Origin: Gilvimarinus gilvus | GTDB taxonomy: Bacteria > Pseudomonadota > Gammaproteobacteria > Pseudomonadales > Cellvibrionaceae | Direction: 5' to 3' | Assembly: GCF_030518155.1 (NCBI RefSeq) | Contig: NZ_JAULRU010000731.1 | Location: 1-64,000, forward strand | DNA length: 64,000 nt | Shown here: piece by piece, positions 9,385-35,326 of the stretch | Layout of the letters: each line of letters opens with the position of its first letter | Numbering within the stretch: position 1 is the first letter of the stretch | Made by a program: the position numbers and the translations under genes | The notes under the pieces: generated by a model | Databases searched by the model: none | Seen by the model: the letters and a program-made list of their open reading frames with translations, nothing else | Told to the model about the DNA's origin: nothing

Positions 9385-9398
9385 AGATAATACTCCTG

Positions 9399-12880: not shown

Positions 12881-12899
12881 ACCGAAACTCCACTCTCTA

Positions 12900-15233: not shown

Positions 15234-15236
15234 CGG

Positions 15237-15872: not shown

Positions 15873-15875
15873 CGC

Positions 15876-16331
15876 TTAATTTACCTGCTCGGGCGTTTGG
15901 CTCTGTGTGTCCCAAAACGCTTGTAACTTTTGCGCAAATAGGTCGGGCATGGCATAACACATTTCGCCGCTGGCGAGATCCACGGCAACCTGCACGCTGT
16001 AGCCTTTGGTAAGAACATCGCCACTTTCAACATCGACAATGCGGTAGGCAATTTTTAAGCGGACTTCCCACTCTTGCAGCGTAGCTTCGATACGGATGGC
16101 ACGATTAAAGCGCGCCGGGCGCACATACTTGATGCGAATATCCACCACCGGAAAGCCATAGCCGGAATCGCGCATGGCCTGATAATTGTACGCAAGCGCA
16201 TCCAGTAATTCGCAACGCGCGTCCTCAAAATATTTGACGTAGTGACCGTGCCAGACGATGTCCATACTGTCGACATCGTAAAACGGTACTTTGCGATCTA
16301 GCGTAACCGACATGGCGTTGGCGTTAGTCAT
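15876..16331 (-). CDS. apeK: Acyl-ACP/CoA thioesterase, 4HBT type (ApeK-like)
   Basis: About 151 residues from MTNANAMSVTL. The YDVDSMDIVWHGHYVKYFEDA segment is the catalytic region of YbgC-like hotdog thioesterases (Asp then GHYVKYFE). The start at 16331 overlaps the ammonia-lyase stop by 8 bp and replaces a long extension that would lie inside that gene. In aryl polyene pathways this enzyme may release off-path or finished acyl chains. Confidence 0.85.
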   Translation of the reverse strand: MTNANAMSVTLDRKVPFYDVDSMDIVWHGHYVKYFEDARCELLDALAYNYQAMRDSGYGFPVVDIRIKYVRPARFNRAIRIEATLQEWEVRLKIAYRIVDVESGDVLTKGYSVQVAVDLASGEMCYAMPDLFAQKLQAFWDTQSQTPEQVN

Positions 16332-17880: not shown

Positions 17881-18835
17881 TGTGGCCAGTTACTCCTGCA
17901 TCTCGCTTATTAGTGTTTTGGTCATCGTTCCAGTAGTCAAAAAAATTGAACCACTGCAGCGGGTACTTACGGCACAACGCCTCTAAGTGTTGCAAATAAG
18001 CCCCTAAAATTTCCTGGCAAACGGCGTCGCGGTGACTGCGCGGCACCCGCCCGCCATCGTACAACAGTTCGAGGCTCGCTTCGTAGCCTGCGGGCGTTGT
18101 GTAACCCGCCATAAAGAACACCGGTACATCCAGCATTAAGGCCAACCAAAAAGGCCCGGTGGGAAATTGTGCCTGCGCACCGAGAAAATCCGCGCTGAAA
18201 AAGCGCTCACTGTTACCCGGGGGTAAACGATCCGCCAGCAAAATTAAAAACTCGCCCTGATCCAGCTTTTCTTTCAGCATCATAGCGGTCGCCGGGGTCA
18301 CTTCTGTGACCTGAATCAAACGCACCTCTGCTTTATCGCTGGCGCTGCGCAACAGTTCGTTAAAATTTTCGGTATTGGCGGTGTGCAATATTACGTTTAG
18401 CTTGAGTGAGCCGTCGTTTTCCACCACGGCCCGGCACATTTCCAGGTTGCCAAAGTGCGCCCCCAGCAGTACCCCGCCCTGCTTCTTTTTTTGCAATTCC
18501 AGCATGGTGGCGTGGCCGGGGAAGCTTACATTCGTGCGCTCAATGCGTCCCATCCAGGCGCCGAGCCGGTCCATTAAGGCGCGGGCAAATGCCATATGAT
18601 GGCGCCACACTTGCCAACGCGTAACGGGCTTATTGGTGGCTCGCTGTAAATACAACGCCGAGTGACGGCGCGTGGCGCTGCGCGTCAGGTAAAAATAGAA
18701 CACCACAACGCACACCACCGGGTACACCAAAAAACGACCGCCGTGGCGATAAAACCAAAACAGCAAACGCATTGCCTGCAAATTGCCGCGCTCGCGAATA
18801 TCCGTCCATTCGGGACGGCCGTGACCGTCACTCAT
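17870..18835 (-). CDS. LpxL/HtrB-family acyltransferase
   Basis: A 321-residue inner-membrane protein with an N-terminal helix (about 24-50) and the HFGNLE catalytic motif (H-x4-E) of lysophospholipid/lipid A late acyltransferases. It overlaps both neighbours. In E. coli the APE locus encodes a glycosyltransferase joined to this kind of acyltransferase, and here they are adjacent separate genes. It probably attaches the polyene or a fatty acyl chain to the lipid anchor. It is not the housekeeping lipid A enzyme, judging by context. Confidence 0.85.
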   Translation of the reverse strand: MSDGHGRPEWTDIRERGNLQAMRLLFWFYRHGGRFLVYPVVCVVVFYFYLTRSATRRHSALYLQRATNKPVTRWQVWRHHMAFARALMDRLGAWMGRIERTNVSFPGHATMLELQKKKQGGVLLGAHFGNLEMCRAVVENDGSLKLNVILHTANTENFNELLRSASDKAEVRLIQVTEVTPATAMMLKEKLDQGEFLILLADRLPPGNSERFFSADFLGAQAQFPTGPFWLALMLDVPVFFMAGYTTPAGYEASLELLYDGGRVPRSHRDAVCQEILGAYLQHLEALCRKYPLQWFNFFDYWNDDQNTNKRDAGVTGHNDR

Positions 18836-19584
18836 GACAACACCTTGCGCAGTTTACGCGCCAACAATACCGGGGAGCGCAACAACATACCGGCCACCAG
18901 TTTTGTGTGCATCCAGCTGATGGCGATGTTGTCCCCCCAAATGCGAAAATTAGAAACACCTTGCTCAGGGTAAATGACTTTTGTCGGTACCGAAATGACG
19001 TCCAGCCCGCGCCAATATAAGCGCACCAATATTTCGGTATCAAAGTCCATTCGCTCGCCTATTTTGACATCGCGCGCCAATGCAATAACCGGCGCCAATG
19101 GGTAAACCCGAAAACCACACATGGAATCTTTTATATCCAGCGACAAGGTTTCTACCCACACCCAAAAATGCGTAATGTAACGGCTGTATAAGCGATGCTT
19201 AGGGACCGAGGCATCATACTGGGGAATACCCGCGACAACCGCCTCAGGTTGTGTCTGCGCGCGCGCAATAAAAACGGCGACATCTTCAACGCAATGCTGC
19301 CCGTCGGCGTCTATTTGCACCGCGTGGCTATAGCCTAAATTATAAGCATGGTGCATACCGAGCAGCACCGCCGAGCCTTTGCCACCGTTGGGGTATTGCT
19401 CTATCAGCTCACTGGCAGTCTCCACACTGAGGGCTTTTAACTGATCACTGGCCGCATCATCCCCACCATCGTTAACCAAGATACAGGCAATGCCCTGAGC
19501 GCGAAGATGGCGCAAGGCAGGCCCAACCAAGTGCGCGTGGTTGTACACGGGAATAACAACACAAGCGCTGAACGTGGGGCTCAC
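18832..19584 (-). CDS. Family 2 glycosyltransferase
   Basis: About 250 residues. CVVIPVYNHAHLV is at the N-terminus, and QIDADGQH carries the metal-binding DxD-like motif. I place the start at GTG 19584, which overlaps the dehydratase stop as GTGA and follows GAGGAG. The longer TTG-started frame lies inside the dehydratase. It probably adds a sugar to the polyene lipid anchor, working with the adjacent LpxL-like acyltransferase. Confidence 0.87.
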   Translation of the reverse strand: MSPTFSACVVIPVYNHAHLVGPALRHLRAQGIACILVNDGGDDAASDQLKALSVETASELIEQYPNGGKGSAVLLGMHHAYNLGYSHAVQIDADGQHCVEDVAVFIARAQTQPEAVVAGIPQYDASVPKHRLYSRYITHFWVWVETLSLDIKDSMCGFRVYPLAPVIALARDVKIGERMDFDTEILVRLYWRGLDVISVPTKVIYPEQGVSNFRIWGDNIAISWMHTKLVAGMLLRSPVLLARKLRKVLS

Positions 19585-19934
19585 GCCGGCAACTCCTCGA
19601 CGCGCAGCGCGCCGCGCGAGCAATCACCCAAGCCATTGCGGTAGTGAAACTTTACCATCTGCTTTTGCGGCAGGTATTGTAAGGTCAGGTGCAGGGTTAT
19701 GGGCGGCCGCACCAACTGCTGAAATTTATTGGACTGTAAGGCCTGAAATTGAAACTTGCGTGCAAAGTAGTGTTCTGCCAAGTGCAGCGCCCAACCTATT
19801 TGCACCACGCCGGCGAGCACCGGCAGGCCGTCGAAGTGGCCGACAAAGCAGGGAAAATCGTCAGTCAGTGGCAGTGACAACTCAACTTTGTTGTCACTGC
19901 GCTCAAGCACGCGCGCGGCGGGAGGCTGCAACAT
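19581..19934 (-). CDS. apeI: ApeI-type 3-hydroxyacyl-ACP dehydratase
   Basis: A 117-residue hotdog protein. CFVGHFDGLPVLAGVVQIGW contains the catalytic His in the GHF-x-G-x-P-V-x-x-G pattern of FabA/FabZ/ApeI dehydratases. It lies 2 bp after the ligase gene and overlaps the glycosyltransferase start. In E. coli ApeI performs the dehydration during polyene extension. Confidence 0.88.
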   Translation of the reverse strand: MLQPPAARVLERSDNKVELSLPLTDDFPCFVGHFDGLPVLAGVVQIGWALHLAEHYFARKFQFQALQSNKFQQLVRPPITLHLTLQYLPQKQMVKFHYRNGLGDCSRGALRVEELPA

Positions 19935-19936
19935 AT

Positions 19937-21322
19937 TTATACTCGCGCCTCCAATAGGTTTTGAATATCCACAGCCAGTATCTTGCCCTGCGTATTGCGC
20001 GGCATAGCGTCGAGGTAGCGCCAGCGCCTGGGCAGCAAAGGCAATTCAAAATAATCCTGCAAATGTCGTTTCAGAATAATGTTCACGGGCCGTTTACCAC
20101 GTACGGCAATAGCATCGAGCCCCGCTTGGGTCAGCGCCGCCACCACGCCGACTTCGTCGCGCCGACCGCGAACTATCGCTACCCGGCTCTCCAGCACCCA
20201 CTCGTGCTCATTAAGGCGGGTTTGCATTTCATTGAGCGATAACCGCTTGCCTTCAACTTTAACCACGGTATCCGCGCGGCCCAGCAGCAAGAAGCGACCG
20301 TCGGGCTGAAGCTCTACACGGTCGCCCATCACAAATTCCGGCAATCCACCCAAATGATTGCCGCGTACGCGCAAACAGCCGTTTGGCGATTGATCGACGC
20401 TGACATTGGGCAGAGCAGTCCAGCACTCGGACTCATTTTGACGACGGTAGGCAACCCCCCCAGTTTCAGTACTGCCGAGAACCTCTATGGGCGCACGGCC
20501 TAACACTTCAGTTATGGCCAAGGCATCTGTCTTGGCCAATAGGCCACCGGAAGAAAAAACGCTGGAAAATGCTCCAGCCTGCGCACAGAAGGGTTCAGAC
20601 TGCGGCAATCGGGAAAGGTGCGTCGGGCTTGACACCAACACAACCGGCGCCAGCTTTTCAGCTTGCTCGGCCAAGACCTCCGGGTAGTGACAGGCTGTTA
20701 TCGCGAAAGGTGCCCGTCGCACCAACGGCCACAAGAGCACATGCAACAAGCCGTAAATATGCTGATGCGACACGGTCGCCAGTACCGGATGCTGTTGCAC
20801 CTCGCCGGCAAAAGCCTGTTCCAGCTCGACCAGTTCGCCGTGCAAATCCGCCAACGTTTTGCGTACAGGCGTCGGTTCAGACGTGGTGCCAGAGGTAAAC
20901 AAAATCATCTCCACCGAACCCACCCCGGCGGACTCGCTAAGCGCTTGTAAGGCTTCAGGTTTAGCTGTTGTTGCCAACAACCCGGCCGGGTGCCACTGCG
21001 GGCAATCCAAGGCCGGTAGCGGCTGATCGGTTATCAGTGCGGAGAAATAATCATTCATTTGACCTGCGGCCCCGGCCTGCAGGTTATGTGGCATAACGAT
21101 GCGCTTACCGGCCAGTGCCAGTGCGGCGAAAATGCAGAGGAAGTCCCAGGGGGAGCTCAGCCACAGTCCAACGCTGTGTTCGGCTTGTTGTGCAATACTT
21201 GCGTAAAAGCGCTCTACCCGCTGTTTAAAGTCGTCGGCACTGAAGACGGTGTCGCCATCGACGGCAACGATATGGTCGCCACCTTGCAGCGCAAGATACC
21301 CTATGTCCAAAGGTTCAGTCAT
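19937..21322 (-). CDS. apeH: AMP-forming aryl/acyl ligase (ApeH-like)
   Basis: A 461-residue ANL-superfamily enzyme. The P-loop LFTSGTTSEPTPVRKT is at about 141-156, GSTETGG at about 285, and a C-terminal lobe carries GKRPVNIILK and a terminal QGK lysine. It activates the aromatic starter acid as an acyl-AMP and loads it on the ACP. It lies in the ACP-membrane protein-ligase-dehydratase order known from APE clusters. The start overlaps the upstream membrane protein gene. Confidence 0.9.
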   Translation of the reverse strand: MTEPLDIGYLALQGGDHIVAVDGDTVFSADDFKQRVERFYASIAQQAEHSVGLWLSSPWDFLCIFAALALAGKRIVMPHNLQAGAAGQMNDYFSALITDQPLPALDCPQWHPAGLLATTAKPEALQALSESAGVGSVEMILFTSGTTSEPTPVRKTLADLHGELVELEQAFAGEVQQHPVLATVSHQHIYGLLHVLLWPLVRRAPFAITACHYPEVLAEQAEKLAPVVLVSSPTHLSRLPQSEPFCAQAGAFSSVFSSGGLLAKTDALAITEVLGRAPIEVLGSTETGGVAYRRQNESECWTALPNVSVDQSPNGCLRVRGNHLGGLPEFVMGDRVELQPDGRFLLLGRADTVVKVEGKRLSLNEMQTRLNEHEWVLESRVAIVRGRRDEVGVVAALTQAGLDAIAVRGKRPVNIILKRHLQDYFELPLLPRRWRYLDAMPRNTQGKILAVDIQNLLEARV

Positions 21323-21876
21323 AACGCGTGTTTTTTATGAAATATTAAATGCCGGTAGGCGAACTCACCGCCAAACAGCAGTCCCATCAGTAGATAGGCA
21401 ATAACCCCGTTGTACAGTGCCCAGACCTCTCGGCTGGCGAACAAGGCCGTCACCGCGGCCAGTGCGGCATTGACAAGAAAAAAACCCACCCAAATACGCG
21501 TCACCCAAGTGGTGTAGGTCAATACAATATCGGGTAGACCTTCGGGATAATCCAGTGCGGCAACTCGGGCAGGCAATGTCGGCGGGTGTACAAGGCTGTA
21601 CATAAAGAAGCCCGCCATGGCCACATTAATGGCTGTCGGTAACAACTTTAGTAAGGTTTCATCGTTGCTCCACCACAAGACGGCGGCGGCGCTAGTCAGA
21701 GCGGTCACAATCAACAGCCGCTGCCACCAATGCTTTACCTTGCAAGCAAACCGCAGCAAGTAAACCGTAGCAATCGCCAAACCGAGGACTCTCGGTTCTA
21801 GCCATTGCATACCTACGTACACCAGCAATGGATACAGCAATAGCACGATCATGGCTACCACTGTGAGAACGCGCAT
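21319..21876 (-). CDS. COG4648-type membrane protein of APE loci
   Basis: A 185-residue protein with five to six hydrophobic segments spread over its full length. It has the length, topology and position (between the second ACP and the ligase) of the conserved membrane protein found in aryl polyene clusters. No enzymatic motif is visible and its role is unknown. It shares 1 bp with the ACP gene and 4 bp with the ligase gene, so it is firmly in the operon. Confidence 0.75.
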   Translation of the reverse strand: MRVLTVVAMIVLLLYPLLVYVGMQWLEPRVLGLAIATVYLLRFACKVKHWWQRLLIVTALTSAAAVLWWSNDETLLKLLPTAINVAMAGFFMYSLVHPPTLPARVAALDYPEGLPDIVLTYTTWVTRIWVGFFLVNAALAAVTALFASREVWALYNGVIAYLLMGLLFGGEFAYRHLIFHKKHAL

Positions 21877-22124
21877 CAGCCTTTACTCAGTAACTCGTCA
21901 ACCACATCGACGGCGTCGCCGATCGTGCGCACGCCTTTAAACTGTTCCGGCTTGAGTTGCTTGCCCGTTACACTGTGAATTTTGGCGGCCAAATCAATAG
22001 CGTCGATGCTATCAAAATCCAAATCTTGATAGAGATCGGCGTCCAGCGAAATATCGTCCTCATCAATCATAAAGGATTGAATTAGGACCGATTTGAGTTG
22101 GTTGTAAATTTCTTCTTTAGTCAT
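21876..22124 (-). CDS. apeF: Acyl carrier protein (ApeF-like)
   Basis: An 82-residue ACP. Ser in DLDFDSIDAIDLA is the 4'-phosphopantetheine site. The acidic four-helix composition and length are standard. It is the second of two adjacent ACPs, 23 bp after the first. In the E. coli system the two ACPs have different roles, ApeE carrying the growing chain and ApeF the starter or other intermediates, but which is which here is uncertain. Confidence 0.92.
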   Translation of the reverse strand: MTKEEIYNQLKSVLIQSFMIDEDDISLDADLYQDLDFDSIDAIDLAAKIHSVTGKQLKPEQFKGVRTIGDAVDVVDELLSKG

Positions 22125-22147
22125 GGAACTGTCTATTGCCCGGTGCG

Positions 22148-22408
22148 TTACTGTGCCTGTTGTGCCAATACAAAATCTCGCAAACTGGCAACGCTGCGAA
22201 AGTGATCTTTATTTTGCTCGGAGTTCGCGTCAATTTTAACATTAAAGCGTTTTTGTAATGCCAGACCAATCTCCAGGGCATCGATAGAATCCAAGCCCAA
22301 TCCGTCGCCAAACAACGGCGCTTCGGTTTCAATATCCTCGACACTCAGGTCTTCGAGCTCCAACTCCTCGATTATCATTGTTTTAATATCGTTATCAATA
22401 TCGGTCAT
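22148..22408 (-). CDS. apeE: Acyl carrier protein (ApeE-like)
   Basis: About 86 residues from MTDIDNDIKT. The attachment Ser lies in GLGLDSIDALEIG. The start at 22408 overlaps the acyltransferase stop by 14 bp, and an earlier in-frame ATG at 22429 is less likely. It is the carrier for polyene intermediates and would need the Sfp-type transferase at 36699-37397 or a host enzyme for activation. Confidence 0.92.
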   Translation of the reverse strand: MTDIDNDIKTMIIEELELEDLSVEDIETEAPLFGDGLGLDSIDALEIGLALQKRFNVKIDANSEQNKDHFRSVASLRDFVLAQQAQ

Positions 22409-23246
22409 AGCGTTGTAAGCCTTCCTCAAAATACTGTTCCAGATAGCCGGTCAACAGCCGGGCCGCCCTGGGCTTATCATCAAAATCATCCACAATGTCA
22501 CGTGGCTCTAGTACCTCGTGCAAATACACATCGATATAGGCTCTGCTGGGCGGAACCTGGTACCATTTTTCGCCTTTGACCAAAGTCAGCGGCTTGCAAG
22601 TAATAAACGCTGTCAGCAGTGGTGCCCCGGTGCGAACGGCAACGTTGGCAAACCCGCGCTTGAACGCCAATGACTGCCCCGCCGTGGTACGCGACCCCTC
22701 GGGAAAGATCAATACCGCCTGCCCGTCCGCCAGAGAGCTGCGACAACCTTGCAGCAATTTGTCCGCATTCTCATTGCTGATAAAACCCGCCGAACGCATC
22801 ACCCCGCGGGTGAAACGACTGCGCCACAGTTCGCCTTTCACCACACAGTTTGCACCGGGCAGAGCGGCAAATAGAATTACCACATCGATCAGTGTTGGGT
22901 GATTGGCAATAACTATGCACCCAGGGGCTTTCTGTAAAAGGGCGCTATTATGCAACGTCACACGGATTAGTCCCAGCACTTCCATCATCTTGACGAAGCC
23001 TGCAAAGCTTTTTTGCTGCAGGCGGCGAATTTTACGGGTTTTTTCCGGCGAATTGGCGCAAAAAAGATGGTAAAGCGGAAACACAAACAAGGTTTGCGCG
23101 AGCGCCGCACCAGAAAAGCTAGCAAAACAAAAGCCGGTGGCGCAAATTCGCCAGGATCGATCCAGCCACTTAACCATGAGCGGCCACGCGCGCCCAACAC
23201 CATTGATGACTAGCGCTGGCATGGGTAAATCGCGCCTTGTGGCCAA
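22395..23246 (-). CDS. PlsC-like 1-acylglycerol-3-phosphate acyltransferase family
   Basis: A 283-residue protein. NHPTLIDV (H-x4-D) at about 134 and FPEGSRT at about 201 are the catalytic and glycerol-phosphate-binding motifs of lysophospholipid acyltransferases. A hydrophobic N-terminal segment suggests membrane attachment. It overlaps the chain-length-factor gene by 77 bp. The start may be later, as MPALVING and MVKWLDRSW are alternatives. It probably transfers an acyl or polyenoyl chain to the lipid anchor. Confidence 0.85.
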   Translation of the reverse strand: MATRRDLPMPALVINGVGRAWPLMVKWLDRSWRICATGFCFASFSGAALAQTLFVFPLYHLFCANSPEKTRKIRRLQQKSFAGFVKMMEVLGLIRVTLHNSALLQKAPGCIVIANHPTLIDVVILFAALPGANCVVKGELWRSRFTRGVMRSAGFISNENADKLLQGCRSSLADGQAVLIFPEGSRTTAGQSLAFKRGFANVAVRTGAPLLTAFITCKPLTLVKGEKWYQVPPSRAYIDVYLHEVLEPRDIVDDFDDKPRAARLLTGYLEQYFEEGLQRYDRY

Positions 23247-23901
23247 ACCAGCCGGCGAGAAAGTTAATCATCATACTGTGGCGGGAGCGCGGCCCCTGTG
23301 CCTGTGCCATAGTCAGCTCTACCGCGTCGGCGCCCGCAGTTGGCGCCCGGTGCAGCAATATCCCAACCGCGGCGGGCATATCCAGTTCATCGCGATAAGG
23401 CTGGTAAAAATCGGCCAATGGCTCATCAGTATGCACCAGTAAAACCTGCTCGCGGCCTGTCGCCAGCCAGGAACAGGCCTCCTGCCAGGCAGCGGCCAAG
23501 GTATCCGAGCCCGCCGCCAAAGCCAGCGATGGCGTATGGATGTCTTTTAGAATGGTAAATAAACCCAGCGCTGAATTGTGTACCGACAAGCTAAACGCGT
23601 TGGGGCTTAAGGGCTCACCACTGGCAAGGTCCCGCAACAATTTAAATGTGCGTGCCGTATCGCCGTGGCGGGACGAAAAGATAACGGGCGTTTGCTCGGT
23701 CAGAGCGGGCGCCAGCGGCTCGGCGACTTCCATTGCTTGCCGGCCCCAACGCGTTAAGCGTCGACGCGTCATAGCCGGCACACCGCCTGCCGCCGGTTTG
23801 TCGTCACCCAGCGGTAGCTCATCTGCGCAAAAACCCTGCCAGTCAGCGCCGGTGCTCAGCCCTGGGGCCCAGGCGTGAAGTTGTGATACCCACACTTGCA
23901 T
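23170..23901 (-). CDS. apeC: Chain-length factor / KS-like protein (ApeC-like)
   Basis: A 243-residue protein shorter than a full ketosynthase. It has the KS-like segment LSVHNSALGLFTILKDI where an active enzyme would carry the nucleophilic Cys, so it lacks that residue and matches the beta-ketoacyl synthase-like chain-length factors of APE loci. It likely pairs with the ApeO-like KS at 9919-11112. It is the first gene of the minus-strand operon. The promoter should lie in 23902-24129. Confidence 0.82.
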   Translation of the reverse strand: MQVWVSQLHAWAPGLSTGADWQGFCADELPLGDDKPAAGGVPAMTRRRLTRWGRQAMEVAEPLAPALTEQTPVIFSSRHGDTARTFKLLRDLASGEPLSPNAFSLSVHNSALGLFTILKDIHTPSLALAAGSDTLAAAWQEACSWLATGREQVLLVHTDEPLADFYQPYRDELDMPAAVGILLHRAPTAGADAVELTMAQAQGPRSRHSMMINFLAGWFGHKARFTHASASHQWCWARVAAHG

Positions 23902-24129: not shown

Positions 24130-25032
24130 TTGCTGAGCTTAGAGCGCGTTAGTTTTGCATATCGCAAACGGCAAGCCTGTATTGACGGGCTCTCACTGTC
24201 GCTGGGCGCGGGCCAAACCTTGGGCTTGCTCGGGCCCAATGGAGCGGGCAAAACCACGCTAGCGTCACTGGTTACAGGCCAACTTACCCCAACCTCGGGG
24301 CAAATTCTGTTTGCGGGGAAACCCGTCTGCTTGGGGCAGCAGGGTATTGCGCTGGTACCGCAAGAGTACGCGTTTTACGCGCGCCTCAGCGGCCGGGAAA
24401 ACCTTATGTTTTTCGCCGGCTTATTGAATTTGCCCAAAAACGAGCAGCAACTGAGAGTCAATCGAGCACTGGCCAGCACCGAGTTGGCAGCCTATGCCGA
24501 CCAAAAAGCGGGGACATTTTCGGGGGGATTGAAACGTCGGCTCAATTTTGCCATTGCCTTGCTGCAACAACCTCAGCTGATGATTCTCGATGAGCCCACA
24601 GCCAACGTCGACCCGCAATCACGAGCTTTTTTGTTAGGCACCATTGCCAAACTCAAGCAAGAGGGCGTGGCTATTATTTACACCTCACACTTGTTGTCGG
24701 AAGTAGAAGCTATCGCCGATAAGGTCGCGCTGCTGCATCGGGGCAAGATTTTACTGGCAGGCGAGCTCTCTGAGCTACTGGCCGAAGATCACCGCTACCT
24801 TTATATACAGCTCGCGCAAACAGCACCGGCCACTTGGCTGGACGCGTTAAGTATGCAGCGAGAGGCCGACAACTGGTATCGCTGCTCTATGCAAGAGCGC
24901 CGTCACAGTCCCGGTGAGATCATTAGCACTTTAGAACAAAAGGGCGCCGACATTCGGCAGATACGTCACGGTCAGCATCGCCTGGAAGAGGTGTACTTGC
25001 GCGCACTGGCCGATGCCGAGGCAAGCTTATGA
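24130..25032 (+). CDS. ABC transporter ATP-binding protein
   Basis: A 300-residue ATPase. Walker A is GPNGAGKTT, the signature FSGGLKRRLN, and Walker B LMILDEPTANVDP, followed by a C-terminal extension. The start is TTG at 24130 (MLSLERVSF), with GAGG about 9 bp upstream and an in-frame stop just before, so no ATG start is available. It couples to the ABC-2 permease that overlaps its 3' end. Location at the head of the second pigment operon suggests export of the pigment or a lipid precursor. Confidence 0.9.
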   Translation: MLSLERVSFAYRKRQACIDGLSLSLGAGQTLGLLGPNGAGKTTLASLVTGQLTPTSGQILFAGKPVCLGQQGIALVPQEYAFYARLSGRENLMFFAGLLNLPKNEQQLRVNRALASTELAAYADQKAGTFSGGLKRRLNFAIALLQQPQLMILDEPTANVDPQSRAFLLGTIAKLKQEGVAIIYTSHLLSEVEAIADKVALLHRGKILLAGELSELLAEDHRYLYIQLAQTAPATWLDALSMQREADNWYRCSMQERRHSPGEIISTLEQKGADIRQIRHGQHRLEEVYLRALADAEASL

Positions 25033-26198
25033 ATGCCTTGCTCGCAGCGCTAAAAAAAGAAACGTTGCTGTTTCTACGCGACTGGCACGCACTCGCGCTA
25101 CTGTTCATTATGCCGATGGTTTTTATCGTCATTATGTCGCTGGCATTACAGGAGCGCTTTGGCGGTAGCGATGGCCTTCAACTTAATGGACAGCTACACG
25201 ACCTGGCCCAGTCACCCAACAGCGTTCGGTTTACCCGCGAATTGGCATTGAGCTCGCACCTTAAACTTAACAGCGACCATGGCGAGCTAAACCAACAACG
25301 CGACTTGTTTGCATTGACACTTGAGCCAGGTTTCGAGGAGTCGTTAGCTGGCGAGAACCGTCAAGCGGGCGCCACCCTGGAGTTTGCCGCTGAGCTGGGC
25401 AAACGCGAGCGAACCTTGATTAGCGCGGCGGTACGTGAAGCTTTTGCAGTGTTAAACAGCACTCTATTGGCTGAAGAGATGGGCTATGACCGGCAATACG
25501 CTGAGCAAGAATTTCTGCGACGAGGATTTGTTGCCACACGCGAACACTCAGCGTTGGCAAACATAGACCCTACGCCTAACGCCGTGCAGCAAAGTGTACC
25601 TGCCTGGCTTATTTTCGCGATGTTTTTTGTCGCTGTACCGCTATCCACCGCGGTGATTAGTGAGCGCCATAACAGAACACTGACACGGGTAAAAACCTTT
25701 GGCGCCACCACCACGTTAATCTATGCGGCCAAATTGACGCCCTACTTCGTCATCAACATGCTGCAGTTGGCCTTAATGCTATTACTTGGCAACCAGCTTT
25801 TACCCGCGCTTGGTGCCGAAGGGCTGGCATTGAACGTAGCTCTTACTCCCCTGTTTATAATGGGTATATGTACCAGCTTTACCGCGTTAGCGCTCGCCAG
25901 TTTGATCGCGGCTCTGGCTTCAAGTACCGAGCAAGCAACGGTCACCAGCGCTACAGTCAATATACTATTGGCCGCGATTGGCGGCGTTATGATTCCGGTT
26001 TTTGTGATGCCACCGGTTATGCAGGCGGTGGCCGTCTGGTCACCCATGGCCTGGGCCCTTGAGGGGTTTCTCGCGGTATTGGTGCGCGGTGGCAGCTGGA
26101 CTGCAATCGCACTGCCTGCAACAAAACTTTTACTGTTCGCCAGTACCTTGATGCTGCTGGCCATCGCACTATTAAAGAGAGGAACACAGGATGGTTGA
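25029..26198 (+). CDS. ABC-2 type permease
   Basis: A 389-residue inner-membrane protein with one N-terminal helix (about 20-40), a long soluble loop with the PAWLIFAMFFVAVPLS segment, and five or six C-terminal helices, as in ABC-2 drug/lipid exporters. It overlaps the ATPase by 4 bp and the following ACP gene by 8 bp, so transporter and biosynthesis are one operon. ABC genes of this kind occur in Bacteroidetes flexirubin loci. Confidence 0.88.
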   Translation: MNALLAALKKETLLFLRDWHALALLFIMPMVFIVIMSLALQERFGGSDGLQLNGQLHDLAQSPNSVRFTRELALSSHLKLNSDHGELNQQRDLFALTLEPGFEESLAGENRQAGATLEFAAELGKRERTLISAAVREAFAVLNSTLLAEEMGYDRQYAEQEFLRRGFVATREHSALANIDPTPNAVQQSVPAWLIFAMFFVAVPLSTAVISERHNRTLTRVKTFGATTTLIYAAKLTPYFVINMLQLALMLLLGNQLLPALGAEGLALNVALTPLFIMGICTSFTALALASLIAALASSTEQATVTSATVNILLAAIGGVMIPVFVMPPVMQAVAVWSPMAWALEGFLAVLVRGGSWTAIALPATKLLLFASTLMLLAIALLKRGTQDG

Positions 26199-26460
26199 TA
26201 GCGTCACTGACGAGCTAAAACTGCGCCTTAAACAAATTATTATCGAGGAGTGTGACAAAGACGAATTAACCCCCGCAGATATTGCCGATGACGCTCCACT
26301 GCTCGGAGAGGAACTTGACCTTGATTCTCTTGATGTACTGCAAATATGTATGGCGGTAAAAAAAGAGTATGGCGTGCGTATTGAAGGCAACACCGCAGCG
26401 AGGCGGGCCTTAAAAAGTATAAACACTCTGGCTCAAACCATTGCGGATGACGCCCGCTAA
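26191..26460 (+). CDS. Third acyl carrier protein
   Basis: An 89-residue ACP. The attachment Ser lies in EELDLDSLDVLQIC. It is separated from the two APE-type ACPs by the divergent promoter and is directly coupled (TAATG) to a ketosynthase, so it is the probable carrier for a second, distinct acyl chain, perhaps a DarB substrate. Confidence 0.9.
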   Translation: MVDSVTDELKLRLKQIIIEECDKDELTPADIADDAPLLGEELDLDSLDVLQICMAVKKEYGVRIEGNTAARRALKSINTLAQTIADDAR

Positions 26461-27629
26461 TGACTGTCTACCTACGTCACTTTGCAGCAAGCTGCAGTTT
26501 GGGCGCAAAACTATCGTCATGTATCGACAATTTAGAAAGTTGCCGACAACCTAATCCCGTGCCGCGAATATTTCACTGCGATGAGGAACAGGTTGTCATG
26601 CCTTACTTTCGCACGGCCCAAAGAACACCCACCAACTTTTATCAATGGCTAATCGAAGAACTTGATCAGCTACTTAGGGACGCCAAACTGGATGCCGATG
26701 CACGCCGCCAAACCGCACTGTTAATTGGCTCATCGTCGTTTGATGTGCACGTTTCAGAGCAACAGTACCGAACGGAAATCGCGAACCTTGGTAGTGAGCA
26801 AGCCGTGGCCATGCCTATAGTGGGTTATGGCAAATTGGCCGAGCGCTGTGGCGACGAACTTGGACTTTCACCACACCGCCACACCTACTCCACCGCTTGC
26901 ACCTCAAGCGCCAACGCGATGATTTATGGCAAGCAGCTGATCGAACAAAGTCTGGTTAAACATGTATTGGTACTCGGTCTCGAACCTGAAAACAACACAA
27001 GCGCTTTGGGATTTTACGGGCTGGGGCTGATCTCTCCCAGTGAACAAATGCACCCGTTCGACAATGATCGCGATGGTTTAGTATTAGGTGAAGGGTTGGG
27101 GGCGGTGCTTTTAAGTGATAAAAGCCAAACACCTGAGCACGAGCAACGTTTTCGCCTTATGGGGGGGGCAATCGGCACAGACAACCACAGCCTTACCGCC
27201 GCACATGTGGACGGCGCCGAAATAGCGCGTGTTATTGAGCAAGCTTTAGCACAAGCCAATATTAAGGCACAAGATATTGCCGCCATTAAAGTTCATGGTA
27301 CGGCGTCATTGAAAAATGACGAAGCCGAAGCCGCGGCTTTACACCGCGTTTTCGGCCCGGCCTTGCCCACCGCCTTTGCCTTCAAACCCTATATTGGCCA
27401 CACTCTGGGCGCCTGTGGTGCATTGGAAGTGGCACTGACATTGGGCTGCCTGCAGGTAGGAAAACTTCCCTGCACCCCCAACGCCAAGGGTGACGGTGAT
27501 CTGGGCATCACCATAACCAACAAGCCATTGCCAAGCCCAACCGGCTATTACTTGTTTAACTGCTTTGCCTTTGGTGGCAATAACAATGCGTTACTTGTGC
27601 ACGATCAGGGGGCTGAGGCTAGACACTGA
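26460..27629 (+). CDS. Beta-ketoacyl synthase of second KS/CLF pair
   Basis: A 389-residue ketosynthase. Cys lies in YSTACTSSANA, with the His pair in VHGTASLKND and KPYIGHTLGA. The next gene, overlapping as TGATG, is a Cys-less KS-like partner, so this is a KS/CLF heterodimer. It may make the saturated or unsaturated chain needed for the dialkylresorcinol half, or extend the polyene further. Confidence 0.88.
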   Translation: MTVYLRHFAASCSLGAKLSSCIDNLESCRQPNPVPRIFHCDEEQVVMPYFRTAQRTPTNFYQWLIEELDQLLRDAKLDADARRQTALLIGSSSFDVHVSEQQYRTEIANLGSEQAVAMPIVGYGKLAERCGDELGLSPHRHTYSTACTSSANAMIYGKQLIEQSLVKHVLVLGLEPENNTSALGFYGLGLISPSEQMHPFDNDRDGLVLGEGLGAVLLSDKSQTPEHEQRFRLMGGAIGTDNHSLTAAHVDGAEIARVIEQALAQANIKAQDIAAIKVHGTASLKNDEAEAAALHRVFGPALPTAFAFKPYIGHTLGACGALEVALTLGCLQVGKLPCTPNAKGDGDLGITITNKPLPSPTGYYLFNCFAFGGNNNALLVHDQGAEARH

Positions 27630-28486
27630 TGTACATTGAAAATAGCTACTCACTACTTCACAAGGTGGATGCCAAAGCACCAGAGCTTGCCGATGCGCAA
27701 AGTGTTATTCAACACTGGCATGGCAAACGTATACGCCGTATTGATCGCTATATTCAACTGTGTGTGGCCGGCGGCCTGGCCTGCACAGAGAAGCGCGAAC
27801 TGCCCGGCAATACCGGGGTTTATCTCGCCACACGGTGCGGCGCCGTATCCACCTCAGCGCTGGTGATGAAAACCATTGAGGCCGAAAACGAACTGCCCAA
27901 ACCGCTGCATTTTATTAACACTCTGGGCAACTCGGCGGGTTTTTATTTAACCCAACTGCTGCAAGTAACCGGTACCGCTCTGGTACTGTCGAAAGAAGCC
28001 CATTCTTTCGAGGCGGCTTTGCTCCACGCACTCATGGATCTGTCTTTAGGCAAATCAGAGTACGCCTTAGTGGGTGCTTTTGATGAGGTAGCGCTGCCCG
28101 TAGAGCACCAACTAAAACGATTGAACTTCGCACCCGATGCGCCGGCACTTTTTGAAGGTAGCCATTGGTTGTTGCTAAGCAATCAACACAAGGCCCTCAA
28201 TGTTTCTCTGCCCATTTTTGCCAACTCTCTGGTAGAAATTGTGAGCGTAACCCAACCTGCGGCAACCAATGTGCAATTGAGCTTCGCACCAACCGATGCC
28301 GAGCGAGAGCAGCTCAGCGAATATCAGGTCAATGTATTTTGCCAGCGCGAGCTCGATCAGGGGGTAGCGCCCCATGGCGCATTCAGTGCGGCATCACTGA
28401 TCGACGCAGTATCCAAAACCGTTCCCATGTTACATATTAGTCGCAGCGACAACGGTTATTACTGCGCCGTGGCCCTTAATGACTAA
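27629..28486 (+). CDS. KS-like chain-length factor of second pair
   Basis: A 285-residue KS-like protein. NTLGNSAGFYLTQLL lies where a KS would carry TACSS, so the nucleophile is absent. It is otherwise thiolase-fold-like but shortened. It is coupled to the preceding KS and resembles the ApeC-type protein at 23170-23901 in this missing-Cys feature. It ends 11 bp inside the convergent GlcG-like gene. Confidence 0.72.
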   Translation: MYIENSYSLLHKVDAKAPELADAQSVIQHWHGKRIRRIDRYIQLCVAGGLACTEKRELPGNTGVYLATRCGAVSTSALVMKTIEAENELPKPLHFINTLGNSAGFYLTQLLQVTGTALVLSKEAHSFEAALLHALMDLSLGKSEYALVGAFDEVALPVEHQLKRLNFAPDAPALFEGSHWLLLSNQHKALNVSLPIFANSLVEIVSVTQPAATNVQLSFAPTDAEREQLSEYQVNVFCQRELDQGVAPHGAFSAASLIDAVSKTVPMLHISRSDNGYYCAVALND

Positions 28487-28969: not shown

Positions 28970-28988
28970 TGTATACTTAATATATACA
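28970..28988. promoter_or_regulatory. Palindromic operator between GlcG-like and LysR genes
   Basis: TGTATA-7 bp-TATACA is a perfect 6-bp inverted repeat of the T-N11-A kind bound by LysR regulators. It lies about 21 bp upstream of the LysR start and 80 bp upstream of the GlcG-like gene, the normal position for autoregulation plus divergent activation. Confidence 0.6.
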
Positions 28989-29009
28989 ATAAGCCGTCAT
29001 GGGGGGCAC

Positions 29010-29897: not shown

Positions 29898-30005
29898 CTC
29901 AAACTGTTTACTTATTGTTAACAGTTTATAACATTCATACCAGATTGTTATATTTTCTGCTCGGTGAGATAGTCAGTGCCACAGCAATTTGTGGAGGACT
30001 ACACC

Positions 30006-31797: not shown

Positions 31798-32790
31798 TTA
31801 AGTCGACTGTTTACACCAGCTCTTCAACTGCAGCCAAACCTGTTTCTCTTGTTCTGCGCACGCGCGCAATTTATCAGAGATCCTCTTAAGGTTTATAGGC
31901 TCTTTTGATTTACATTCTTTCACCACAATAAGTGCGAACTCTCGCCAGGTATCGCCCACGTTGGTCATCGCTTTGGATGCGTCCGTCAGGGATTCGTCTC
32001 CGAGTAGCTTGGCCGATTCCTGCAAAAACGAGGCATAAACAAAACGAAAACCTGCACCACCGGTGCCGATCTCTTCTTGCATACGCACAATATGGCCGAG
32101 ATACAGTCGCTTATCTTTTTCGCTACCGTTGAGTTTGTCGATTTTTTTAGCCAGGTAATGAATCCCGCGAATGCCAATAACAGGTAAAGGAGCACCTGTC
32201 ATCACCTTAACGTTCTTGGCAATGGCTGCGCTGATCACTTTGGGGTAATCAATCCTCTCCGGTACGGAATCAATGGTATACATTAACCCCTTCGGCGCCA
32301 GTGGACCGCGCACAAACCGCGCCTTATTCAAATCTCGCGGCGCTATTTCCATCGGTTCTTCAAACACCGGATCACTGATTTGATAAACCGTTTCGCGCTT
32401 GCCGTAAACCAGAAGGTTATGTGCATTAAAATGAAAGCGCATTTCTTCGGGAAAATACGGCAAGTAATACACCGAAGTTTGCAGCCCCACCAAAACGTTT
32501 TTTTCGACCAGGTCGTCCAATGCGTTGGCCGCCGTCATGGGGTCTTTAAACTTGTGAAACTTCACCTCGACCCCCAAGCGCTTACACAAGCCCTTAATGA
32601 TGGCACGGGGTGGTAGGCGATAGGCGATCAACGGCTGTCCACCCAGCTTTACAATCGGGATGTAAGCAAATGCCAATGCGTTCGCCAAACCAAATGCCAT
32701 AGGCTCGCTAATGGGCAGGCCGTGATGGGTTAACAACGACGAGATAACACCGCTTTCGCAGTGTGCCGATTGGCTGTGGCTAAAAGTCAT
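31798..32790 (-). CDS. BtrH-like acyltransferase / cysteine-protease-fold protein
   Basis: A 330-residue protein. The N-terminal half resembles the BtrH N-terminal domain, a papain-like fold. Cys11 (SAHCESGVIS), His124 (FNAHNLLVYG) and Asp140 (QISDPVF) are placed as a catalytic triad. The second half is an alpha-helical DUF4872-like region. BtrH in butirosin synthesis moves an acyl group from an ACP to an amine acceptor. In flexirubin-type loci with DarA and DarB, the same chemistry could move the polyenoyl group from ACP to a resorcinol hydroxyl. That role is inference. It overlaps the next upstream gene by 4 bp. Confidence 0.75.
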   Translation of the reverse strand: MTFSHSQSAHCESGVISSLLTHHGLPISEPMAFGLANALAFAYIPIVKLGGQPLIAYRLPPRAIIKGLCKRLGVEVKFHKFKDPMTAANALDDLVEKNVLVGLQTSVYYLPYFPEEMRFHFNAHNLLVYGKRETVYQISDPVFEEPMEIAPRDLNKARFVRGPLAPKGLMYTIDSVPERIDYPKVISAAIAKNVKVMTGAPLPVIGIRGIHYLAKKIDKLNGSEKDKRLYLGHIVRMQEEIGTGGAGFRFVYASFLQESAKLLGDESLTDASKAMTNVGDTWREFALIVVKECKSKEPINLKRISDKLRACAEQEKQVWLQLKSWCKQST

Positions 32791-33194
32791 TCAGGTTTTT
32801 CCGGCAGAGATTGTATATAGGTGACGGGTCGATCCATGGCCTCGGCGTAGCGCTGCAAAACAGATTCATTTAAACGTACGAAGTGGCGGGGGTTAAAATG
32901 GCGCTTGACGCGCCAGCGCCATATACCCGTTAGCTGGCACAATAAAGGCAGGTCCATGCGACAGTCATACATATGAAAATACAGCGGTGATTTCGCGCCG
33001 GCAATGACCTCACTCCGGGCCTGCTCGGCCCACAGCTCAAACTGCGCCACCGCATCAAGAGTGGCGGTGGCTTCCACGTCCCAGCCGGTACTTTGCACCC
33101 CCTGATACTGACCGTCCTGACCCTGGGCGTAGAGTAGCTTCTTATGCCCGGCGTAGGTACTGCTTTTGTCCTGAGGAACGTCATCGGCGCGCAC
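32787..33194 (-). CDS. Conserved small protein of unknown function in DAR module
   Basis: A 135-residue soluble protein with aromatic-rich C-terminal half (RMDLPLLCQLTGIWRWRVKR, then HFNPRHFVRLN). No motif I recognise. It lies between darB and the BtrH-like gene with 4-bp overlap to the latter. A dedicated partner of one of them is likely. The longer frame to 33268 in another frame is not supported. Confidence 0.6.
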   Translation of the reverse strand: MRADDVPQDKSSTYAGHKKLLYAQGQDGQYQGVQSTGWDVEATATLDAVAQFELWAEQARSEVIAGAKSPLYFHMYDCRMDLPLLCQLTGIWRWRVKRHFNPRHFVRLNESVLQRYAEAMDRPVTYIQSLPEKPE

Positions 33195-33207: not shown

Positions 33208-34359
33208 TTAAACCACTTCTAATAGCATATAAGAAACAGAAAAACGCCCACTCTCCGGTATATAGCACAAGAGCTTTTCACCGCGTTTTAGTTGCCCACT
33301 TTTAAACAAGTCATCAATCATTATATAAATGGATGCCGCCCCGGTATTGCCCTTTTCTGGCAAGTTAGTGAACCAGCGCGACTGATCAATAGCAAAATCG
33401 GCGTTTTGCATACACTGATCCAAACGCTCACGAAAATAATGTGAAGAGTAATGCGGCAAGAAGTAGTCGACCTGCTCGGGTGTCATACCGTATTTGTCAC
33501 GCAGCTTTGGCAAAGTTTTTTCCGCCGTATAGGGCATAATGTGTTCATTGAGCTGTTTAACATCTTGCTTAACCGACATAAAACTATCGGCGGCCGCCTC
33601 AGTGCGTTCCACCGCCTGCCAGCCGGTTAGCTCGCCGCTGTGTTCCTTGCGTGCTCCTGCGTACATACAGGCGGTCATTTCATTCGCGTACGACAGCACA
33701 TCAATCCACTCAATTTTTAGCGCCAGCTGGTCCGCAGGCTTTTCGCGTTGAAGCACCATTGCACCGGCGCCATCGGACAACATCCAGCGCAAAAAGTCTT
33801 TTTCAAAGGCAATTTCCGGATTGGCTTCCAACTCAGCAATACGTTGCTCTAACTCGGGCGAGAAGTTGTCCGCTTTCATGGTATAGGATGCAGCCTCTGA
33901 TGCCGCCGCCACCGCCGAACAATGAACACCGGCGGCAACGCTTAAGTAAGCGTATTTGAGGGCAGTCATGCCACTGACGCACACACCTGAGGTGGTCGCT
34001 ACTTCACAGGGAGGATTACCTAGCTCGCCATGCACCATAGCAGCATGCCCAGGCATCAACTGATCGGCAATACTGGTGGCCGCGGCCAAACAGGTTATCG
34101 CCCCTAAGGGCACCTCATCACCCAGCGCTTGCTTAACCGCTTCGGCGCATAGCTGTGCATTGGTGTAATTGTGTTTGCCCGTCACAGGATCAATAGCGTA
34201 GTAACGGGTTTTGATCTGATTGCTACGCAAAATAATTTTGCGCGAACGCGAGGCACGGGCGCCCACTTGCCCCAACAAGGCTTCCATATCGTCATTCGCG
34301 ACAGGCTCGTTGGGCAAAAAACTACCAGTATGTGTAATGTAAACCGAATTTTCAGACAT
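33208..34359 (-). CDS. darB: KAS III-like ketosynthase DarB
   Basis: A 383-residue thiolase-fold enzyme. Cys127 in TTSGVCVSGMTAL, His in YFLPHYSSHYF and Asn in LPEKGNTGAASI form the KAS III triad. DarB enzymes join a beta-ketoacyl thioester to a second (enoyl) acyl chain and cyclise them to a cyclohexanedione, the resorcinol precursor. It is next to darA, as in Bacteroidetes flexirubin loci and in Azoarcus arcuflavin. Confidence 0.85.
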   Translation of the reverse strand: MSENSVYITHTGSFLPNEPVANDDMEALLGQVGARASRSRKIILRSNQIKTRYYAIDPVTGKHNYTNAQLCAEAVKQALGDEVPLGAITCLAAATSIADQLMPGHAAMVHGELGNPPCEVATTSGVCVSGMTALKYAYLSVAAGVHCSAVAAASEAASYTMKADNFSPELEQRIAELEANPEIAFEKDFLRWMLSDGAGAMVLQREKPADQLALKIEWIDVLSYANEMTACMYAGARKEHSGELTGWQAVERTEAAADSFMSVKQDVKQLNEHIMPYTAEKTLPKLRDKYGMTPEQVDYFLPHYSSHYFRERLDQCMQNADFAIDQSRWFTNLPEKGNTGAASIYIMIDDLFKSGQLKRGEKLLCYIPESGRFSVSYMLLEVV

Positions 34360-34384: not shown

Positions 34385-35326
34385 CTAATCTTCGCCTGAA
34401 GGCCAGGCATAATATTGTTTCTGCTGGGCTATGCGTTGTTTCATTAACGGCCCGAACACGAACTTAAGCAAGGCTGTAATCGGCACAACTGTCAGCAGCA
34501 TTAACACCAAAAAAGCGATATAAAATGCGGCTAAGAGTCGACGCGGTGTTGATGTAGGATCACCGCAGGCCAGAAACAACTTACCCCACAAATAAAAACT
34601 GCGAGTAACAAGTTTTTCGCTGGCAATCAGTTTGTCATTTACCTTAACTGCACCCAGCCCATTGAGTACCGTCTCGTCCAGATCCTGATTTTGCTCAAGG
34701 CGTTGCAACAGCGCCGTCCCGAATCTGGGCGCCTCTTTTATGTCTTTCTCGCTAACGCCTGCCGGCGGCACCAGACCAAACCAGTGCGGGCCTTTGCGGC
34801 CTGTTAGCACCCACAGTGGAGTTGCGAAAAAGCTAGCAACCGAACCTGCCGCATCGACCAATACAACATTACCCACCAGCTTTGCGTTTAAGCGCTGCAG
34901 ATGTTGCTTTACTTTTTCCTGCGCTTGCAGCCACATATTGCGACAGGCTATGACGGTAACAACGGGTGTATTAGCCATTAACTTGCTCGCCAATTCACTT
35001 TGCAAAAACGACGATACCGGAATTGACGGAGCTAAATACCATACCTGATAGGCCAGGACTACGAGGTCGTACTCTTGGGCTAAGTGTGCAGTGCCTAAAT
35101 TCAGCGCACAGGGAACCTGGTGAGCCGACTCTGGAAACGCGTTGATAAAGCGCAGCATCGGCCAGGGAAACGGGTAGTCCTGCTCAGGCCGTATATTGAG
35201 AAAATCAACATCCACGGTCGTGGCCTCAACCAAGGGTTCCACAACCGCTTGTGCGACACGATCTAATTGGCCGGTTTGCGAGTAGTGAACCACCAAAACA
35301 CGCTTGTTTGCTTTTCGTTGGGTCAA
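34385..35326 (-). CDS. darA: Dialkylresorcinol-forming enzyme DarA
   Basis: A 313-residue protein. N-terminal VLVVHYSQTGQLDRVAQ is a flavodoxin-like FMN loop. A C-terminal transmembrane segment at about 268-297 anchors it. DarA proteins aromatise the cyclohexanedione made by DarB to a 2,5-dialkylresorcinol. The flavodoxin-like loop fits an oxidative aromatase. The first gene of the minus-strand dar group has about 100 bp of promoter region upstream. Confidence 0.85.
   Translation of the reverse strand: MTQRKANKRVLVVHYSQTGQLDRVAQAVVEPLVEATTVDVDFLNIRPEQDYPFPWPMLRFINAFPESAHQVPCALNLGTAHLAQEYDLVVLAYQVWYLAPSIPVSSFLQSELASKLMANTPVVTVIACRNMWLQAQEKVKQHLQRLNAKLVGNVVLVDAAGSVASFFATPLWVLTGRKGPHWFGLVPPAGVSEKDIKEAPRFGTALLQRLEQNQDLDETVLNGLGAVKVNDKLIASEKLVTRSFYLWGKLFLACGDPTSTPRRLLAAFYIAFLVLMLLTVVPITALLKFVFGPLMKQRIAQQKQYYAWPSGED

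What the first reader, a model, noticed from the sequence alone, without database searches (positions are those of the whole stretch)
31798..33194. BtrH-like protein with unknown partner as candidate ester-forming enzyme
The 330-residue protein has Cys11, His124 and Asp140 placed like a papain-type triad and resembles BtrH, which moves an acyl group from an ACP in butirosin synthesis. It overlaps by 4 bp a 135-residue protein of unknown family and sits next to darB. The ester bond joining polyene acid and resorcinol needs an ACP-dependent acyltransferase, and no other gene in the dar half obviously does this.
Basis: inference. Interest (0 to 1): 0.65.

Follow-up and report, generated by a model that had tools for sequence, protein, structure and literature searches.

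The report
Likely pigment ester-forming enzyme pair DarG-DarH
Two overlapping bacterial genes, already catalogued in a public protein library, probably make the enzyme pair that joins the two halves of a coloured pigment by an ester bond, a step for which I found no proven enzyme.

Summary
Two open frames, 330 and 135 aa, overlap by 4 bp (ATGA) directly behind darB. They are not of unknown family: NCBIfam names them DarH ("BtrH-related acyltransferase", 483 bits, cut-off 300) and DarG family (164, cut-off 70), and the pair stands in the 2014 Azoarcus arcuflavin gene table as darE/darD. The ester idea gains support. DarG and DarH occur in exactly the same 18 of 369 class genomes, all 18 with darB and a polyene marker; 0 of 64 polyene-marker genomes without darB have DarH; a Photorhabdus darABC genome lacks both. 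Cys11, His124, Asp140 are invariant in 45 of 45 DarH. The model matches AziU3, CtaG and CcbD over about 300 residues (Z 20-25); CcbD is a reported carrier-protein-dependent amide-forming enzyme. Against it: six genomes have darA, darB and a polyene marker but no DarG/DarH, and no chemistry was tested. DarG's C-terminal half is predicted to be Cro/C1-like helix-turn-helix, and its divergence tracks DarH's more than darA's or darB's. Best reading: DarH, helped by DarG, is the carrier-protein-dependent O-acyltransferase that makes the ester (0.68 for DarH's role). Family known; reaction unproven.

The parts
31798..32790 (-). darH (Azoarcus name darE): BtrH-type acyltransferase, 330 aa; BtrH_N residues 10-141 with C11, H124, D140; DUF4872 residues 153-321 with invariant RMQEEIGTGG..FR
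32787..33194 (-). darG (Azoarcus name darD): 135-aa partner; predicted beta-hairpin, long helix 39-64 and a Cro/C1-like helix-turn-helix at about residues 62-133
33208..34359 (-). darB, StlD/DarB-family ketosynthase/cyclase
   Evidence: NF005293, 583.9 bits, cut-off 450; below the cut-off of NF053539, 483.8 of 550
34385..35326 (-). darA, aromatase; only a sub-cut-off flavodoxin-like match, so assigned by its position beside darB and by matching genes beside darB in relatives
24130..25032 (+). darF, ABC transporter ATPase, companion of darGH
25029..26198 (+). darI, ABC-2 permease, companion of darGH
26191..26460 (+). darC, acyl carrier protein, candidate carrier
26460..27629 (+). darJ, ketosynthase
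27629..28486 (+). darK, no Pfam match; found near darH in 30 of 62 named loci and in 0 of 18 darB loci without darH
6207..23901 (-). aryl-polyene block: ketosynthases, reductase, dehydratase, MMPL exporter, LolA-like, thioesterase, aromatic amino-acid lyase, LpxL-like and PlsC-like acyltransferases, glycosyltransferase, AMP-ligase, chain-length-factor ketosynthase

Best explanation
DarH with DarG is the enzyme that joins the aryl-polyene acid to the dialkylresorcinol. Proposed steps: (1) the finished polyenoyl chain sits as a thioester on an acyl carrier protein (DarC or a polyene-cluster ACP); (2) DarH Cys11, activated by His124 and Asp140, takes the acyl group in a ping-pong reaction as reported for CcbD; (3) a phenolic OH of the resorcinol made by DarB/DarA attacks the acyl-enzyme and gives the aryl ester; (4) the DarF/DarI ABC transporter may then move the product. 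DarG is a partner that binds DarH or the carrier, using a helix-turn-helix fold. Shown here: gene pair, triad conservation, family fold (by model), co-occurrence. Inferred: every chemical step, the carrier, the nucleophile and the role of DarG. The confidence given is for DarH's role; for DarG as a partner rather than a regulator I put 0.6.
For: Family: BtrH_N plus DUF4872, NF053550 at 482.6 bits. Triad C11/H124/D140 invariant in 45 of 45 and in 20 of 20 of a second set that includes two relatives at 24% identity. The model (pLDDT 94.1) matches AziU3 (Z 25.3, 309 residues), CtaG (Z 24.1, 294; deposited variants C11A, H128A, D144N) and CcbD (Z 21.4, 302), against about Z 12 over the N-terminal half for C39 peptidases. 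CcbD makes an amide from a carrier-bound acyl group by a Cys-His-Glu ping-pong (PMC12945683, passages). Distribution in 369 genomes: DarH 18, all within the 21 with darB over cut-off; 0 of 64 polyene-marker genomes without darB (Fisher within the 85 marker genomes 1e-15, not corrected for relatedness). Not needed for the resorcinol: darA+darB of C. pinensis give it in a heterologous host (PMC3992019, passages). A Photorhabdus darABC genome lacks DarG/DarH. Azoarcus, which has the pair as darD/darE, makes a hybrid whose ester link its authors predict from mass spectra, and the free resorcinol was not detectable in its extracts (PMC3949708, section 18 and passages). DarG in exactly the same 18 genomes as DarH; 32 of 62 loci share the 4-bp overlap and 49 of 62 overlap; partial distance correlation DarG-DarH 0.585, the highest of six pairs, 0 of 999 permutations as high.
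Against: Six distinct genomes (G191; G212, seemingly the same genome as L080; G098; Pseudomonas L082, L103, L151) have darA/darB and the polyene marker but no DarG/DarH; G212 and G098 are only 82% and 85% complete. Four of the 38 DarH genomes given to one search lacked the PF13723 marker, and three more reach it only marginally (E 5e-13 to 7e-12). Of the four, two (L118, L146) also lacked the exporter, though L146 has other polyene-type genes beside DarH; L118 shows no polyene gene that I looked for. CcbD and CtaG are described as making amides, AziU3 acts in aziridine formation (recalled); I know of no ester-forming member. DarF, DarI, DarC and DarJ follow a like distribution, so distribution alone does not single out DarH. 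C. pinensis authors proposed another enzyme, FlxW, for this step. DarG's fold could equally mean a DNA-binding regulator.
Confidence: 0.68

Rival explanations
1. DarH is a carrier-dependent acyltransferase but acts on another acceptor: it puts the polyene, or the resorcinol's fatty chain, on a different carrier, a lipid or a sugar, and another enzyme (for example the FlxW-type ligase) forms the ester.
For: CtaG is described as one that would pass an acyl group from one carrier to an amine chain on another carrier (PMC6772006, passage). DarC, DarJ and DarK accompany DarH, so a carrier and ketosynthases are at hand. FlxW was proposed for the ester (PMC3992019, passages).
Against: darA+darB suffice for the resorcinol in a heterologous host, and DarH is absent from 64 of 64 polyene-marker genomes without darB, so the acceptor should belong to the joint product.
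Confidence: 0.17
2. DarH is a C39-like peptidase or hydrolase working with the DarF/DarI transporter (the 2014 table calls it 'BtrH-like peptidase').
For: The N-terminal half resembles peptidase domains of PCAT and ComA transporters (Z about 11-12), and DarF/DarI accompany DarH.
Against: In the rows with low rmsd only residues 1-180 match those peptidases, whereas AziU3, CtaG and CcbD match over about 300. Pfam gives BtrH_N and DUF4872, no C39 family.
Confidence: 0.07
3. DarG is a DNA-binding regulator of the pigment genes and has no part in catalysis; DarH works alone. (This concerns DarG only and does not compete with the others for the same odds.)
For: Predicted Cro/C1-like helix-turn-helix; weak HTH_26 matches in 6 of 44 members, best E 0.0028. 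A Streptomyces BtrH-family gene also overlaps a MerR/GyrI-like gene by 4 bp.
Against: DarG overlaps darH in 49 of 62 loci; it was not found without DarH in 369 genomes nor in 12 darB genomes without DarH; its divergence tracks DarH. W94, R98 and H99 are at least 90% conserved in a set spanning Pseudomonadota, Campylobacterota and Desulfobacterota (phylum names recalled), which fits a protein partner better than varied operators (inference).
Confidence: 0.3
4. The ester is made by an acyltransferase of the polyene half (LpxL-like 17870-18835 or PlsC-like 22395-23246) and DarGH does something else.
For: Both are acyltransferase families.
Against: A phospholipid/glycerol acyltransferase is described as highly conserved across these polyene clusters, and xanthomonadins, which lack a resorcinol, come from a cluster that also encodes an acyltransferase (PMC3949708). 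I did not map the two window genes onto those.
Confidence: 0.08

Closest known systems
NCBIfam NF053550 DarH_acyl and NF053536 DarG_fam
   Same: window proteins score 482.6 (cut-off 300) and 164.3 (cut-off 70)
   Different: nothing; they are members. The product name gives no reaction, and I could not see what the model rests on. The window DarG is below the flexirubin_DarG cut-off (125.9 of 170)
Azoarcus sp. BH72 darD/darE (PMC3949708)
   Same: same place beside darB and matching annotation (BtrH-like; conserved hypothetical) in a hybrid producer
   Different: I saw no role given in section 18 and the passages read; I did not hold the Azoarcus sequences. Azoarcus has a chorismatase-type aryl supply where the window has an aromatic amino-acid lyase. 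Azoarcus' own darG/darH are a Phd/PilT pair, a naming clash
CcbD (celesticetin)
   Same: fold over 302 residues, Z 21.4; Cys-His-acid triad; carrier dependence reported
   Different: amide with an amino sugar, Glu as third residue, no small partner that I know of
CtaG (closthioamide)
   Same: fold Z 24.1, 294 residues; deposited variants at C11, H128, D144
   Different: described as predicted to form an amide on a second carrier
AziU3/AziU2 (azinomycin, recalled)
   Same: best fold match (Z 25.3) and solved as a complex with a second protein
   Different: aziridine formation (recalled); AziU2 did not appear among DarG's sequence matches or listed fold matches

Membership tests
BtrH family (PF14399 BtrH_N + PF16169 DUF4872) | both domains over gathering score | tested here: met
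   162 and 182.8 bits against 29.7 and 28
BtrH family | Cys-His-acid triad conserved | tested here: met
   C11, H124, D140 in 45 of 45 and 20 of 20
BtrH family | full-length fold of solved members | tested here: met
   predicted model, Z 19.7-25.3 over 292-309 residues to AziU3, CtaG, CcbD
BtrH family | acyl transfer from a carrier protein | not testable with these tools
   needs an assay
DarH (NF053550) | score over curated cut-off | tested here: met
   482.6, cut-off 300
DarG family (NF053536) | score over curated cut-off | tested here: met
   164.3, cut-off 70
flexirubin DarG (NF053545) | score over curated cut-off | tested here: not met
   125.9, cut-off 170
Peptidase C39 | Pfam C39 model match | tested here: not met
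   only BtrH_N and DUF4872 at E 0.01 or better
Cro/C1-type HTH (for DarG) | sequence model match | tested here: inconclusive
   none for the window protein; HTH_26 weakly in 6 of 44 members
Cro/C1-type HTH (for DarG) | fold | tested here: inconclusive
   the 50 listed VIA rows are HTH regulators or enzymes bearing such a domain (HppE, HEPD, MPnS), Z 6.8-9.6; best Foldseek E 0.016, none at 0.001

The most novel reading that the evidence does not exclude
DarG-DarH is a two-subunit aryl-ester synthase: an O-acylating member of the BtrH class (the first that I know of), taking a polyene from a carrier protein to a phenol, with an obligate subunit recruited from a Cro/C1-type helix-turn-helix protein. 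Its presence or absence would decide whether a bacterium with both gene sets makes the joined pigment or two separate products.
Probability: 0.4. Interest if true: 0.72.

Novelty: new member of a known kind. Interest (0 to 1): 0.52.

Why it matters
Flexirubins are marker pigments of the Bacteroidetes and related hybrids occur in Proteobacteria, yet in what I could search the enzyme that joins their halves has only been guessed at (FlxW in 2014). A two-gene candidate with a defined active site makes the question testable by one deletion or one assay. If true it extends a class known to me for amides to aryl esters, gives genome miners a marker for joined versus separate products, and offers a phenol-acylating catalyst that takes acyl groups from carrier proteins.

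Tried and rejected
Simple rule 'DarH wherever polyene and resorcinol genes coexist': rejected by six distinct genomes. Peptidase reading: disfavoured by length of match. Common origin of DarG and AziU2: no support; AziU2 did not appear in the DarG profile search nor in the listed fold matches, which does not exclude it. A solved relative of DarG by sequence: none at meaningful E. A solved relative of DarH by sequence: the first profile found AziU3 chains at E 3e-4, but the second, larger profile did not list them at E 1 or better, and in both the top rows were designed coiled coils, taken as chance; the tie to AziU3, CtaG and CcbD rests on the fold. A plasmid-borne DarH: only BtrH-family proteins, best about 30% identity in the rows shown. 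Direct evidence of DarH in flexirubin producers is therefore missing here. No coordinates of the models were in the Python box (listing), so active-site geometry was not measured. A positively charged stretch near the end of a C-terminal helix (R283 invariant; K/R at 291 in 37 of 45, at 294 in 45 of 45, at 296 in 35 of 45) lies roughly where CcbD is said to bind its carrier, but I matched it only by residue offset, so I make no claim of it. In print: I found no paper assigning the ester step to DarH/DarE in the listings of searches, nor in the passages I read of PMC3949708, PMC3992019 and PMC9606717; the library holds only open-licence PMC papers, and most listed papers were not opened.

Full report
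What is there. The window carries a polyene block (6.2-23.9 kb), a block darF-darI-darC-darJ-darK (24.1-28.5 kb) and, on the other strand, darA-darB-darG-darH (35.3-31.8 kb). darG and darH overlap by 4 bp as ATGA, and darG starts at GTG behind AAGGAGG. The search of the window's own genome found one place for darH.

Names. NCBIfam calls the 330-aa protein DarH (NF053550, equivalog, 482.6 bits, cut-off 300) and the 135-aa protein DarG family (NF053536, 164.3 bits, cut-off 70); the flexirubin-specific DarG model is not reached (125.9, cut-off 170). In Azoarcus BH72 the pair stands in the published gene table as darE (BtrH-like peptidase) and darD (conserved hypothetical) between darB and darF (PMC3949708, section 18 read in full, other parts as passages); the same order is seen here in Pseudothauera and other Rhodocyclales (L130, L094, L099). 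That table uses darG/darH for a Phd/PilT pair, so the names clash.

Distribution, unnamed class sample. The same 369 genomes (drawn evenly from the class, at least 80% complete, the window's own among them) were searched four times. darB over cut-off: 21; weaker matches in 348 genomes include other ketosynthases, so only the cut-off is used. DarH over cut-off: 18, all among the 21. DarG over cut-off: 18, the same 18 genomes. Polyene chain-length-factor proxy PF13723 at E 1e-10 or better: 85, including all 21; this proxy is mine and its weaker hits may include other ketosynthases. So DarH is in 18 of 21 genomes with both, 0 of 64 with the proxy alone, and 0 of 284 with neither. Left out of these counts: four longer but sub-cut-off darB-like matches (G074, G290, G017, G215; no DarH, no proxy) and two distant BtrH-family proteins (G132, G011; 126 and 103 bits; no darB over cut-off, no DarG, no proxy). 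The three exceptions (G191, G212, G098) have darA and darB without DarG or DarH in the 20-40 kb taken; their proxy lies on another contig, as it also does in some DarH genomes such as G156 and G258. Fisher tests are and ignore relatedness.

Distribution, named sample. 62 of 80 carry both DarG and DarH, 18 carry neither (tblastn with the window proteins). Of the 18 genomes, 6 have DarH elsewhere, each with DarG beside it (6 of 6); 12 have no DarH and no DarG (0 of 12; the control genomes of that call rang nowhere, but the same model rang in 18 genomes). Of the 12, four have the proxy (a gammaproteobacterial MAG that seems to be G212, and three Pseudomonas); eight do not, among them Photorhabdus tasmaniensis and two cyanobacteria. 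Three of those eight have a polyene-type exporter match (L127, L157, L085), so five have neither. Of the 68 genomes with DarH (62 plus 6), 38 were given to because of its limit: 34 have the proxy, three of them only marginally (L131, L144, L147). Of the four without, L117 has a clear exporter match and L148 a weak one; L146 has none but has ketosynthases, a reductase and a lyase-like gene beside DarH; L118 shows neither. The Photorhabdus locus is darA-darB-ACP, the plain resorcinol type; a review table lists isopropylstilbene/dialkylresorcinols/cyclohexanedione for Xenorhabdus and Photorhabdus and calls aryl-polyene clusters Xenorhabdus-specific (PMC11547657, passages). P. chlororaphis is described with darA, darB, darC, darS, darR and a liberated resorcinol (PMC6403133, passages); I did not hold its sequence, and the three Pseudomonas loci here have other neighbours (methyltransferase, alpha/beta hydrolase, DJ-1, AraC), so I do not equate them.

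Companions. The DarI permease was sought in 31 genomes, the DarH-positive ones chosen mostly because DarI was not seen nearby: 14 of 16 with DarH, 1 of 15 without (G212 and L080 counted apart though seemingly one genome). In the named loci DarF, DarI, DarC, DarJ and DarK matches stand near DarH in 56, 55, 54, 48 and 30 of 62, against 2, 4, 5, 0 and 0 of 18; ATPase and carrier matches may include unrelated genes, and three of the four DarI cases (L131, L146, L148) are in genomes with DarH elsewhere. The module tied to the joint pigment is thus about DarFI-DarC-DarJ-DarGH, and DarH is its only member of an acyltransferase family apart from the ketosynthases.

DarH as an enzyme. C11, H124 and D140 are invariant in 45 of 45 aligned proteins (the window and 44 of the 62 named loci; 18 dropped by hand, 17 as close relatives and one cut by a contig end), and in 20 of 20 of the class set including two relatives at 24% identity. 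The HC of the active Cys is seen in 62 of 62 named loci. Also invariant in the 45 are H5, H10, R58, Q104, R118, H120, R236, E239, GTGG 242-245, R249 and R283. The model has mean pLDDT 94.1. Foldseek and VIA-align put AziU3, CtaG and CcbD far above all else (Z 19.7-25.3 over 292-309 residues); C39 peptidases and phytochelatin synthase follow at about Z 12 over 130-160 residues. By sequence the tie is weak: one profile finds AziU3 at E 3e-4 over the stretch with the His and Asp, the other does not. CcbD is reviewed as a carrier-protein-dependent amide-forming enzyme with a Cys-His-Glu ping-pong (PMC12945683, passages). CtaG is described as one that would move hydroxybenzoate from one carrier to a tri-beta-alanine chain on another (PMC6772006, passage). 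BtrH is described as acyl carrier protein:aminoglycoside acyltransferase (PMC10318531, passages).

DarG. DarG lies before DarH on the same strand in 62 of 62 loci: 49 overlap, 32 by exactly 4 bp, 55 lie within 30 bp, 7 further (127-2344 bp), four of them Pasteurellaceae with other genes in between (starts chosen by script). Distances of DarG and DarH correlate beyond those of DarA and DarB (partial r 0.585; the other five pairs -0.02 to 0.44; 40 loci after dereplication of 53; 0 of 999 permutations). The model (pLDDT 86, blocks of the N-terminal 40 residues 60-77) shows a helix-turn-helix of Cro/C1 type, with scores that the tool warns can be common for helical proteins. AziU3 being solved as a complex with AziU2 is a working parallel, not a homology.

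Reading. The resorcinol can be made by darA+darB alone and DarH is missing from 64 of 64 proxy-only genomes, so DarGH belongs to the joint product. Its fold and triad are those of carrier-protein acyltransferases. In Azoarcus, which has the pair, the free resorcinol is not found in extracts though its DAR proteins make it in E. coli, and its authors predict the ester link from mass spectra. Ester formation is the simplest fit. It remains an inference: no assay, no mutant, no flexirubin producer examined here, and the six coexisting but DarGH-less genomes must be explained as non-coupling. The published alternative that I saw is FlxW.

Noticed in passing
L134, L135, L137, L143: between DarG and DarH: In four Pasteurellaceae loci 0.9-2.3 kb of other genes sit between darG and darH; an ORF in L134 and L135 looks like a RhuM-type protein by eye (recalled, no search). 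It may be an insertion hotspot.
   Followed up: partly
window 28476-31714: HbpS-like, LysR-type, glutathione-transferase-like and dioxygenase-like ORFs stand between the two halves of the dar locus (Pfam only for the HbpS-like; the others by eye). Among the dar loci mapped, two (L130, L156) listed a LysR match and none the other three.
   Followed up: no
L172 2257-4073 (Streptomyces plasmid NZ_CP108735.1): Another BtrH-family gene overlaps by 4 bp a gene with MerR HTH and GyrI-like domains: pairing of BtrH enzymes with HTH-bearing partners may recur.
   Followed up: partly
L058 (G132) 9531-10457 and L059 (G011) 9539-10471: Two distant BtrH-family proteins (24% identity) without darA/darB/darG matches in their 20 kb, the first near two ABC ATPase matches.
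   Followed up: no
window 27629-28486: darK has no Pfam match, yet its matches stand near DarH in 30 of 62 named loci and in 0 of 18 darB loci without DarH.
   Followed up: no
plasmids collection: 45 Acinetobacter plasmid records hold a match to DarH; the rows shown are about 28% identical and annotated as BtrH or DUF4872 domain proteins.
   Followed up: no
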